Assembly (NCBI RefSeq): GCF_039908635.1
Contig: NZ_CP150918.1
Span: forward strand, 3,860,001-3,924,000
Direction: 5' to 3'
DNA from: Pseudomonas purpurea
GTDB lineage: Bacteria > Pseudomonadota > Gammaproteobacteria > Pseudomonadales > Pseudomonadaceae
Length of the DNA stretch: 64,000 nt
In this document: positions 6,765 through 64,000 of the stretch, in pieces
Layout of the letters: each line of letters begins with the position of its first letter
Position numbering within the stretch: position 1 is the stretch's first letter
Notes under the pieces: model-generated
Database searches by the model: none
What the model was told of the DNA's origin: nothing
What the model saw: only the letters and a program-made list of their open reading frames with translations
Program-made: the position numbers and the translations under genes

Positions 6765-7935
6765 TTAAGACGGTGTTGTTGCCCAGAACGCCGGAGCGCT
6801 GGCGCATGTTGCCTTGATCAATTGTGCGGCCTGATCGATGTCCTGCTCGGTGGTAAAACGCCCCAGGCTCAGTCGAATCGTTCGACTCGCACTGCGCGCA
6901 TCATGCCCCAGCGCCAGCAGTACATGGGACGGCGCATTGCTCGCAGAGTTACAGGCCGACGTGGCCGAGAACGCGATAGACGCACTCAAGGCCGACGAAT
7001 TGAACTCGCCCTCGCTGAAGGTCAGGCTCAAGGTGTGAGGAATGCGTCGGGTTACGCTGCCGTTCAACCTGAGGCCTGCAATACCCTGGAGCTGCTGGAG
7101 CAAACGCTCGCGCAAATGCAGGATGGTGGCAGCCTCTTCATCAAAATGTTCCGCCGCCAGCGCAAACGCGGCGCCCATGGCGGCAATCTGGTGCGTCGCC
7201 AGGGTGCCTGAGCGCAACCCGCCTTCATGACCCCCGCCATGAATCTGCGCCTGCACGTGCTGCCGGGCACGCGGCCCGACGTACAGCGCGCCGATGCCTT
7301 TGGGGCCATAGATTTTGTGTGCGGAAAAGGACATCAGGTCGACCGGCCATTGCGCCAGGTCTATCGCTACTTTGCCTGCGCCTTGCGCGGCGTCGACGTG
7401 GAACAGTGCGCCATGTTCACGCACCCGCTGGCCGATGGCCGGGATGTCGTTGACGGTGCCCAGTTCGTTGTTGACCAGCATCAGCGACACCAGGAACGTA
7501 TCCTCACGCAACGCTTCGCTGACGGCTTGCGGGCTGATCAGGCCTTCGGCATCCGGCACCAGCCAGGTCACGGCAACGCCCGCGTCCTGCAATTGCTTGG
7601 CGGTATCCAGGATCGCCTTGTGCTCGATCTGACTGGTGATGATGTGCCCGCCCGTCACGCCGCGTGCCTGGGCGACCCCCTTGAGGGCAAGGTTGTTGGA
7701 TTCGGTGGCGCCAGAGGTCCAGACGATTTGCTCGGCTTGCGCACCGACCAGGCCCTGCAACCTGCTGGCGGGCCTGCTCGACCGAAAGCCTGGCCTGCTG
7801 GCCGAAAGCGTGGGAGCTGGAAGCCGGGTTGCCGAAGTTACCGTCAAACCCCAGACAATCGACCATCACCTGGATGACCCGCTCATCCACCGGCGTGGTG
7901 GCGGCGTAGTCGAAATACAAAGGACGTTTATTCAT
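6765..7935 (-). CDS. Cysteine desulfurase, IscS/NifS family (one frameshift)
   Basis: Class V PLP-dependent aminotransferase fold; such enzymes take sulfur from cysteine for Fe-S clusters and thio-cofactors. It starts MNKRPLYFDYAATTPVD. It contains SGATESNNLALKG, the His of EHKA, VDAAQGAGK, and the PLP lysine in SFSAHKIYGPKGIG. The reading frame breaks at 7751-7755: residues before it end in RQQVAG, and the next frame carries straight on with LVGAQAEQIVWTSG. Removing one base of GGGCC (minus strand) restores a complete protein of about 389 residues. The active-site loop cysteine region is not the clear IscS type (SACNSAS near residue 320). I regard the break as a likely sequence error. The gene stands alone, not in an isc or suf operon. 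Confidence 0.85.
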
Positions 7936-8135
7936 AAAAAACCCGCAGAGCTTGTTCCGGGATCAGGTACGCACCATAAACCCACTGGGCAACGCCGTCT
8001 TACGGACAGCGCGCCAACAGCGCAGGTCAGCAATACCTGATCGGATGCCGTTAAAGAAGTACCACTTCATTAAAAGTGCGTAGGAACGCTCCTGGAAGTG
8101 AGCTTAACAGGCATCGGGCGCCGGGTTGAAGCCGG

Positions 8136-8750
8136 TCAGCTGAAGCTTTCGTGCAGCATCGGATACATCGAAGCCACCAACAGCAGCGCCATGCCCCAGT
8201 TGAACACCCGCAACCAGCGCCGATCCCGCAGGACATTGCGCAACAGGCTGCCGCAAACCACCCACACGCTGACGCTCGGCAGGTTGATCACGGCAAAGAC
8301 TGCGGCGATGACGATCACATTGGTGAAGTAGCCCTGCAAGGGTGTGTAGGTACTGATGGCGCCGATGGCCATGATCCAGGCCTTGGGGTTGACCCATTGG
8401 AACGCCGCGGCACCCAGATAGCTGATGGGTTTGGCCTGGCCTTGCTCAGATTCCGAGACAGGGCCGGAGTGGGCGATTTTCCACGCCAGGTACAGCAAGT
8501 ACGCCGCACCGACATAACGCAACGCGGTGTAGAGCAACGGATAGGCTTGAAACACCGCGCCCAGGCCAAACCCGACCGCAACCACCAGGACGAAGAAGCC
8601 GCAGGTGATGCCCAGCATATGGGGGATGGAGCGGTTAAAACCAAAGTTCACGCCGGAGGCCAGCAACATGGTGTTATTCGGGCCCGGTGTGATCGAGGTG
8701 ACAAGAGCAAACAGGGCAAAGCCCAACAGCAAATCCAGCGAGAGGGTCAT
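8136..8750 (-). CDS. LysE/RhtB-family amino-acid exporter
   Basis: This 204-residue inner-membrane protein has about six helices. The N-terminal LLLGFALFALVTSITPGPNN carries the family signature TPGPNN near residue 22-27, and WVNPKAWIMAIGA near 118 is also typical. LysE/RhtB proteins export basic or neutral amino acids; the substrate here is not determinable. It starts at an ATG with GGAAAA upstream. It is single, with unassigned spacers on both sides. Confidence 0.88.
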   Translation of the reverse strand: MTLSLDLLLGFALFALVTSITPGPNNTMLLASGVNFGFNRSIPHMLGITCGFFVLVVAVGFGLGAVFQAYPLLYTALRYVGAAYLLYLAWKIAHSGPVSESEQGQAKPISYLGAAAFQWVNPKAWIMAIGAISTYTPLQGYFTNVIVIAAVFAVINLPSVSVWVVCGSLLRNVLRDRRWLRVFNWGMALLLVASMYPMLHESFS

Positions 8751-8847
8751 GGGCGTTTTCCATCAGGGTCGGTCAGGTGTTGACCCTATCCCAGCGCCTC
8801 GACGAAACCCACGGACAGTTGGGTGAAACTTCGAGCAGTACAGTCGC

Positions 8848-9117
8848 TTAACTGGAGTGGCCGTGCTGGATCAGCCCACGCTCGGCGTTCATTTCGCCGT
8901 GCTGGTCGAACGCGAAGGCTTTCTGTGGCTGGCCGAGCAATTCGGCCTTTTTCTGTTGGTACTCATCGAACGAAAGGCCACGACGACTCAATGCCTCCAG
9001 CGCCAGCTCCCTGGATTCCTCAGCGGTGTAGGGACGCAATTCGGGCGATGGCTGGTTCGCGCAACCGGCCAGCACCGAGGCGACCAACAGCAGTGAAGTG
9101 ACGAGCAAGTGATTCAT
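8848..9117 (-). CDS. Small hypothetical lipoprotein
   Basis: An 89-residue protein with signal MNHLLVTSLLLVASVLAGCA, lipobox LAGC (Cys19), so probably outer-membrane anchored. The mature part is charged and helical (EESRELALEALSRRGLSFDEYQQKKAELL) and resembles a short SHOCT-like helical tail, which I cannot confirm. The ribosome site GGGAG lies just before the ATG. No specific function. Confidence 0.7.
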   Translation of the reverse strand: MNHLLVTSLLLVASVLAGCANQPSPELRPYTAEESRELALEALSRRGLSFDEYQQKKAELLGQPQKAFAFDQHGEMNAERGLIQHGHSS

Positions 9118-9243
9118 GGGAAACTCCCGCAGTCCTGAGCTTGGGCAATGGACACAGGCTACGCGCGCCCCTCAAGTGACAAAAATCATCGCTCTCGATA
9201 GTGGCTATCGACCTTGGCAACAACCGACCGTCATTGCCGACTC

Positions 9244-62822: not shown

Positions 62823-62899
62823 CACTAGCCAAGGAACTTGCACGCGATGTATACGTCTCAAGGTCAGTAACCAAAAGTAATCATTTTCGGAGACACACC

Positions 62900-63121
62900 A
62901 TGACTCAACGGACCCTCGCCACTTTCATGCTTGCCCTGGGCCTCGCCACCCTCGCCGGTTGCGCTTCGCCAACGGTGATCACTCTGAATGACGGTCGCGA
63001 AATCCAGTCTGTCGACACCCCAAAATTCGATTCCGAGTCGGGTTTCTATGAATTCGAACAGTTGGATGGCAAGCAAACCCGCATCAACAAAGATCAGGTT
63101 CGCACCGTTAAAGATATGTAA
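62900..63121 (+). CDS. Small lipoprotein of the YgdI/YgdR family
   Basis: A 73-residue protein: signal MTQRTLATFMLALGLATLAGC with lipobox LAGC (Cys21), then VITLNDGREIQSVDTPKFDS and GFYEFEQLDGKQTRINKDQV, the SH3-like YgdI/YgdR fold. These lipoproteins are common and of unknown function. TCGGAGA precedes the ATG. Followed by a terminator. Confidence 0.9.
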   Translation: MTQRTLATFMLALGLATLAGCASPTVITLNDGREIQSVDTPKFDSESGFYEFEQLDGKQTRINKDQVRTVKDM

Positions 63122-63138
63122 GCCTGGGCTACACACAT

Positions 63139-63163
63139 AAAGCCCGCCTCGTGCGGGCTTTAT
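63139..63163. terminator. Bidirectional intrinsic terminator
   Basis: TAAAGCCCGC, loop CTCGT, GCGGGCTTTA, followed by TCGTTT. It ends the lipoprotein gene and probably the convergent pseudouridine synthase gene. Confidence 0.9.
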
Positions 63164-63171
63164 CGTTTACA

Positions 63172-64000
63172 TCACCACTGCAAAGTGATTTCACTCTCGA
63201 ATTCGCGTTCCTGCCCGGTGACCGGGTCAACAAAACGCAGACCCTGAGCCAGTAGTTTCAGGGGATTGGCGTAATCATCCTCGGCATCCTTCACAACCTC
63301 GGGATAAAACGGGTCATTGCAGATACTCGCTCCCAATGCCGTCATGTGCACCCGCAACTGATGCTTCTTCCCGGTCACGGGGTACAACCCGTAGCGCCAC
63401 AAGTCGCCGCTCTTCTCCCTGACCTCGACAGCCGTCTCGGTATTGCTGACACCAGGACCTTCCTGCATGCGAAAAAACGGTTCGCCATCGATCAATCGGC
63501 TTTTGTGCACCAGAGGAAAGGACAACTGCGGCAAGGCGCGGGCGATGGCTTCATAGCGCTTTTCGATTTGTCGGGTCGGGAACAGTGACTGATAGGCCCG
63601 AACGGCTTTGCGGGTTGGCGGAGAACAACACAAGCCCTGCCGTGTGCCGGTCAATACGGTGCAAAGGCACCAGATGCGGGTTGTCCAGGCGCCGGATCAG
63701 GCGACGCAGTAACGTCTGCTCCACGTACTCACCGGCAGGTGTGACGGGCAGAAAATGGGGTTTGTCCGCCACCACCAGATGCTCATCGGCGTACAGGATC
63801 GTCTCGAGCACGGGAATGGCTTTTTCGTCGGGCACTTCACGAAAGTAGTGAATGCGCAGCCCTTCCTTGTAAGGCAGATCAACCGCTATGGCATGGCCTT
63901 GACCATCAAGAACGCGTCCCCTGGCGATACGGTCCAGCCATTGCGCACGGCTGATGGCACTGAAGTGTGCGCACAGGCAATCGAGCACGGTCGACCACGC
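63172..64000 (-). CDS. RluA-family pseudouridine synthase, 5' end outside window (one frameshift)
   Basis: The reading frame runs in from the right edge (AWSTVLDCLCAHFSAISRAQW), so the true start lies beyond 64000. The S4-like N-terminal part is followed by the catalytic domain with the active Asp in LVPLHRIDRHTAGLVLFSA, and IEKRYEAIARALP, PVTGKKHQLRVHMTALGA (RluA motif III). The frame breaks at 63595-63599: NPQSRS should continue AYQSLFPTRQIEKRYEA; one base too many in the GGCC of TCGGCCTAT. It modifies an rRNA or tRNA uridine; which one is not clear. Confidence 0.88.

What the first reader, a model, noticed from the sequence alone, without database searches (positions are those of the whole stretch)
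7751..63599. All seven frameshifts in the window are +1 insertions at GGCC
Six genes are broken: cysteine desulfurase (7751-7755), pvdL twice (36842-36847 and 40360-40364), atuA (45682-45687), atuC (48317-48321), the NarL-type regulator (58727-58732), and the RluA-type synthase (63595-63599). In each case both halves fit a complete protein when one base is removed, and the removed base always turns GGGCC/GGCCC back into GGCC (or GGGGCC into GGGCC). Seven of seven at one palindromic tetranucleotide is unlikely to be decay by mutation. A systematic read error is the best explanation, and such errors can be caused by a modified base, so this strain may carry a methylase acting at or around GGCC.
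Basis: seen in the sequence. Interest (0 to 1): 0.75.

Follow-up and report, generated by a model that had tools for sequence, protein, structure and literature searches.

The report
Sequencing errors at sulfur-marked GGCC sites
The seven broken genes are almost certainly reading errors in the assembled genome, and the likeliest cause is not DNA methylation but a sulfur atom that this Pseudomonas puts into its DNA backbone at some GGCC sites.

Summary
In detail: all seven breaks are one-base insertions at GGCC relative to two relatives. I found 13 more coding insertions in the surrounding 464 kb and 5 of 5 near 39-75 kb, 3.8 Mb away: 25 in about 279 kb of covered coding DNA, all at GGCC. An A flanks GGCC in 23 of 25, against 1167 of 2782 unaffected sites (p=2.5e-7). 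One insertion splits gyrA, which has no second copy, so the inserts are most likely sequence artefacts. Instead the genome has dndBCDE, the DNA phosphorothioation system; its DndC has Arg-Asn-Arg in the loop that a 2025 paper ties to the GpsGCC target. DndC is over cut-off in 10 of 398 genus genomes, this one included; only this one and G330 have that loop. G330 shows three such insertions; controls are cleaner but not blank. Best reading: base-calling errors at phosphorothioated GGCC. Platform and raw reads are unknown, so sulfur as the cause is inferred.

The parts
7751..7755 (.). affected GGCC site in the IscS-like cysteine desulfurase gene (minus strand, frames 6765-7847 and 7504-7935)
   Evidence: +1 against G059 and G056; halves match IscS-type models
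   Evidence: +1 against G059 and G056
40360..40364 (.). second affected GGCC site in the same synthetase gene
   Evidence: +1 against G059 and G056
   Evidence: +1 against G059, G056 and G306
   Evidence: +1 against G059, G056 and G306; both halves match TIGR01117 weakly
58727..58732 (.). affected GGCC site near the 3' end of a NarL-family response regulator gene
   Evidence: +1 against G059, G056, G306 and G120 in the DNA alignment; not caught by the protein scan
63595..63599 (.). affected GGCC site in an RluA-family pseudouridine synthase gene (minus strand)
   Evidence: +1 against all five relatives

Best explanation
The strain is a Pseudomonas whose DndBCDE proteins put a sulfur between the two G's of some GGCC sites (GpsGCC). 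Native DNA was probably read by a single-molecule instrument. At sites that carry sulfur in most molecules, and in a context to which the base-caller is sensitive (mainly A before GGCC), the disturbed signal was over-called as one or two extra G or C bases in most reads and the consensus kept them. Shown: the inserts, their restriction to GGCC, the A preference, gyrA among the split genes, the dndBCDE genes and the DndC loop. Inferred: that this DNA is phosphorothioated, that GGCC is the target here, that sulfur disturbed the reading, and the kind of instrument.
For: 25 of 25 counted coding frameshifts in two regions are +1 or +2 at GGCC; 14 of 24 agreed insertions and 0 of 9 agreed deletions are at GGCC. 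A flank in 23 of 25 against 1167 of 2782. gyrA split at residue 497 of 912, no other gyrA-type match but an open 777-residue frame taken as ParC. dndB, C, D, E in a row. DndC loop GYPAPRNRFRW fits the Arg-X-Lys/Arg pattern reported for GpsGCC enzymes, P. fluorescens Pf0-1 among them (passages of PMC12193691). Phosphorothioates disturb nanopore current at several positions in a context-dependent way (PMC9069010 section 18). Dnd modifies a fixed minority of its sites in Salmonella (12%; passages of PMC9521924), as expected if about 1% of GGCC sites fail.
Against: No reads, no platform, no chemistry seen. The second genome with the same loop, G330, shows only three events in 148 kb coding, C-flanked rather than A-flanked, one of them at a gene junction. 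dnd-negative G059 has one comparable +1 at a C-flanked GGCC seen against G056, G330 and own, and lenient counting finds two more in G059 and one in G056 in divergent multi-gap stretches. 2 of 25 sites have no A flank. Not every methyltransferase family was searched.
Confidence: 0.72

Rival explanations
1. A generic consensus error at short G/C runs of an unpolished assembly, with no modified base involved.
For: All events lengthen a G or C run; G059 and G330 show a few similar C-flanked events; homopolymer indels are the primary nanopore systematic error (passage of PMC10687267).
Against: Only 14.9% of coding G/C-run bases belong to GG+CC+ runs, yet 25 of 25 counted events lie there; A flank in 23 of 25; no deletions at GGCC among 9 agreed.
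Confidence: 0.12
2. A base modification other than phosphorothioate at GGCC or A-GGCC (m5C, m4C, m6A or another) causes the same reading error.
For: Modification-linked systematic nanopore errors at short motifs are documented in Listeria (passages of PMC10687267); a type I HsdM is present.
Against: No PF00145 match; the PF01555 match is a fragment with no N-terminal half in any of the three forward frames just upstream; type I enzymes recognise split motifs (recalled). Other methyltransferase families were not searched.
Confidence: 0.11
3. The inserts are real: in vivo slippage or damage at GGCC, or decay of the strain.
For: Sequence alone cannot exclude a single site; the phosphorothioate sulfur is chemically reactive (start of the abstract of PMC11931770).
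Against: gyrA is split with no second copy; 25 events in about 279 kb coding would mean some hundreds of dead genes; 24 of 25 junctions are flanked by stretches of 60-100% protein identity on both sides.
Confidence: 0.03

Closest known systems
DndABCDE DNA phosphorothioation, GpsGCC type (P. fluorescens Pf0-1, Streptomyces lividans)
   Same: dndBCDE gene set, DndC loop of the Arg-X-Lys/Arg type, GGCC as the affected site
   Different: Phosphorothioation itself is not shown here; the A-flank preference is not something I found described for GpsGCC enzymes; no dndFGH-type hit among the 10 neighbouring frames scanned
Phosphorothioate detection by nanopore error (PMC9069010; passages and section 18)
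   Same: Base-calling disturbance at Dnd sites is the signal
   Different: GAAC/GTTC sites in Salmonella and a synthetic insert, read-level comparison with a control; here the finished consensus itself appears changed
Modification-mediated nanopore errors in Listeria (PMC10687267; passages)
   Same: Strain-specific errors in ONT-only genomes centred on a short motif and linked to a defence or modification system
   Different: Their counts are of mismatches at GCAGC and GCTGG; here insertions at GGCC

Membership tests
DndBCDE phosphorothioation system | dndB, dndC, dndD, dndE genes together | tested here: met
   TIGR03233 571.7 bits, TIGR03183 676.1 bits, TIGR03185 659.8 bits, all over cut-off; PF08870 102.4 bits; consecutive at G000:C1 909.5-914.5 kb
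DndBCDE phosphorothioation system | cysteine desulfurase (DndA or IscS) as sulfur donor | tested here: inconclusive
   No dndA was recognised among the 10 neighbouring frames scanned; an IscS-like gene lies in the window, split in the assembly; the rest of the genome was not searched for it
GpsGCC-specific DndC | Arg-X-Lys/Arg in the specificity loop (PMC12193691, passages) | tested here: met
   GYPAPRNRFRW in own and G330; TKA, SRS or NQS in the 8 other DndC over cut-off
GpsGCC-specific DndC | phosphorothioate present in the DNA at GGCC | not testable with these tools
   needs mass spectrometry, iodine cleavage or raw signal
Modification-mediated sequencing error | events confined to one short motif | tested here: met
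   25 of 25 counted coding frameshifts at GGCC; but 10 of 24 agreed insertions of any kind, coding or not, are not flagged at GGCC
Modification-mediated sequencing error | error vanishes in amplified DNA or accurate reads | not testable with these tools
   no reads held
HaeIII-type GGCC C5 methyltransferase | C5 cytosine methyltransferase domain | tested here: not met
   PF00145: 0 matches in the genome; control rang in 10 of 14 known genomes

The most novel reading that the evidence does not exclude
The published sequence is an accidental partial map of phosphorothioate sites: each insert marks a GGCC that carries sulfur in nearly all cells, and the A (especially TA) flank is a target preference of this DndCDE rather than of the base-caller. 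False frameshifts at Dnd motifs in public assemblies could then tell which strains are phosphorothioated, and where.
Probability: 0.35. Interest if true: 0.75.

Novelty: new variant of a known kind. Interest (0 to 1): 0.58.

Why it matters
An assembled chromosome rated 100% complete appears to carry false breaks at about 1 in 100 coding GGCC sites, gyrA among them, so pseudogene calls and gene losses read from such genomes mislead. If sulfur is the cause, the mark that corrupts the sequence can be read back from the errors: a screen of existing assemblies for active GGCC-type Dnd systems, and a handle on why Dnd marks the same small subset of its sites, a question that PMC9521924 takes up.

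Tried and rejected
GGCC methyltransferase: set aside because PF00145 is absent and PF01555 is a fragment. Real decay: set aside because of gyrA. YAGGCC as an exact motif: it fitted 19 of 20 sites in the first region, but in the second region only 2 of 5 have YA, 2 have GA and 1 has no A, so only the A preference stands. The Fisher test counted two neighbouring GGCC runs as hits and is replaced.

Dropped before the count: the protein scan of the 464-kb region gave 33 frameshift clusters. 19 were counted; window site 58727, which the scan missed, was added from the DNA alignment, making 20. The 14 left out were seen against one reference only (13) or with conflicting shifts (1, near 3944172). 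None of the 14 has a +1/+2 at GG+CC+; two of them have a -1/-2 beside such a run against one relative each; two (3950201, 3968914) are -1 differences against three or four relatives, not at GGCC. One of the counted sites (4052672) and all five of the second region rest on a single reference. In one search, 10 of 24 agreed insertions in own were not flagged at GGCC (one lies four bases from a GGCCCC run), and one of the 14 that were (3970005) is not among the 25.

Own 0-100 kb against G059 0-120 kb: no shared region, so G056 2.488-2.568 Mb was used. Literature: in searches I saw no listed paper reporting phosphorothioate-caused insertions in consensus sequences; these were listings, and passages were read in PMC9521924, PMC9069010 (plus its section 18), PMC12193691, PMC7461809, PMC11931770 and PMC10687267. 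Only open-licence papers are held, so this is weak evidence of novelty.

Full report
1. Setting. The window lies at 3,860,001-3,924,000 of a single 5.93-Mb contig. The 80 loci kept for one window gene (of 582 matching stretches) are nearly all titled Pseudomonas, with members of the P. fluorescens group on top. Complete relatives with about 82% DNA identity are G059 and G056.

2. The observation. I compared the window and 400 kb around it with 400 kb each of G059 and G056, by tblastn of the relatives' open frames and by DNA alignment at the junctions. All seven reported sites carry one extra base at a G-run/C-run junction against both relatives. I found no other clean coding frameshift in the window.

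3. Wider sample. With five relatives (G059, G056, G330, G306, G120) the 464-kb region, 239 kb of it covered coding DNA, holds 20 counted coding insertions of one (17) or two (3) bases, all at GGCC; the 14 clusters not counted are told under Tried and rejected. A second region, about 40 kb coding covered by G056 alone, gave 5 frameshifts at 39-75 kb, 5 of 5 +1 at GGCC. Together 25 of 2807 coding GG+CC+ sites in own are affected. In the independent indel count, 14 of 24 agreed insertions and 0 of 9 agreed deletions are at GGCC.

4. Context. A directly 5' of GGCC on one strand: 23 of 25 affected, 1167 of 2782 unaffected, Fisher p=2.5e-7. TA beside GGCC: 8 of 69 such sites affected, against 17 of 2738 of the rest. 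One of the two sites without A (3955971) lies next to a CAGGCC.

5. Artefact rather than biology. The insertion at 4,025,177 lies at residue 497 of the 912-residue gyrA product of G059, with 99% and 96% identity on the two sides. The G059 protein has the gyrase A domain and the C-terminal propeller repeats. The only other PF00521 match in the genome is an open 777-residue frame at 626 kb, taken as parC by inference. Gyrase is essential (established knowledge), so the insert can hardly be in the living cell's only copy. Other split genes match class II DAHP synthase (over cut-off), an Ohr-family peroxiredoxin, a 2-dehydropantoate 2-reductase, a CPA2-type antiporter, and, below the curated cut-offs, a PhoQ-like sensor and an IscS-like desulfurase (names are of the G059 homologues).

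6. Controls. Same rule with each relative as target: insertions at GGCC were own 14 in 244 kb; G059 0 in 140 kb; G056 0 in 75 kb; G306 0 in 98 kb (one deletion there); G120 0 in 94 kb; G330 2 flagged and 1 two bases off the run in 112 kb. A lenient test of every frameshift cluster gave +1/+2 at GGCC in 19 of 33 for own, 3 of 7 for G330 (3 of 3 agreed by three relatives), 3 of 10 for G059, 1 of 11 for G056, 0 of 4 for G306 and 0 of 8 for G120. One of the G059 events (4815007) is a clean, C-flanked +1 also absent from own; the other two, and that of G056, lie in multi-gap stretches. So the controls are much cleaner per kb than own, but not blank, and G330 is only weakly above them. How any of these genomes was sequenced is unknown.

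7. Candidate cause. No C5 methyltransferase match was found. The genome has dndB, dndC, dndD and dndE in a row at 909.5-914.5 kb. DndC is over cut-off in 10 of 398 genus genomes, own included, and has no match in G059 and G056. The loop that PMC12193691 ties to target choice reads RNR in own and G330, TKA in 3, SRS in 4 and NQS in 1 of the other eight. The paper's passages give Arg-X-Lys/Arg for GpsGCC enzymes, a TRS loop for the E. coli B7A enzyme (GAAC/GTTC), and TQN or NQT for GATC. G306 (TKA) and G120 (SRS) show no insertions at GGCC.

8. Mechanism. Phosphorothioates change nanopore current at several positions, depending on context (PMC9069010 section 18), and alter polymerase kinetics in SMRT sequencing (PMC9521924 passages). 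A lengthened or distorted signal over a two-base run could be over-called by one or two bases; this step is inference. Because Dnd modifies a fixed minority of its sites (12% in Salmonella, the same subset in independent clones), only some GGCC sites would fail. That study also reports a 5' A or C flank preference at GAAC/GTTC. Whether the A preference here belongs to DndCDE or to the base-caller cannot be told.

9. Extrapolation. 25 per 279 kb of covered coding DNA would give some hundreds of false breaks in the chromosome; this is an estimate from about 5% of it. One more candidate lies outside the counted set: an HsdM gene at 369.3-370.2 kb changes frame close to an A-flanked GGCC run; it was not compared with relatives.

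10. Verdict. Observation confirmed; read error very likely (about 0.95); phosphorothioation as its cause likely (0.72, set a little lower after the stricter look at the controls); methylase not supported.

Noticed in passing
G000:C1 369335-370238 (L223): A type I HsdM match is split over two frames close to an A-flanked GGCC run, probably the same artefact.
   Followed up: partly
G000:C1 about 3312430-3312861 (L224 4430-4861): A 143-residue frame matching only the C-terminal part of N4/N6 DNA methyltransferases, near transposase-like frames.
   Followed up: partly
L187 14537-19549 and neighbours: The dnd cluster has no restriction partner (dndFGH type) recognised among the 10 neighbouring frames scanned; an Mrr-like endonuclease gene (L187 10607-11413) lies beside it.
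   Followed up: no
L240-L248 (dndC of nine other Pseudomonas): DndC specificity loops differ: RNR in G330, TKA in 3, SRS in 4, NQS in 1; TKA and SRS are not among the loop types in the passages I read, so their targets are open.
   Followed up: no
window 1-64000: GGCC is over-represented (630 against 503 expected), so it is not avoided.
   Followed up: no
L158 region, G059:C1 4815007: dnd-negative G059 has a single clean +1 at a C-flanked GGCC relative to G056, G330 and own.
   Followed up: partly
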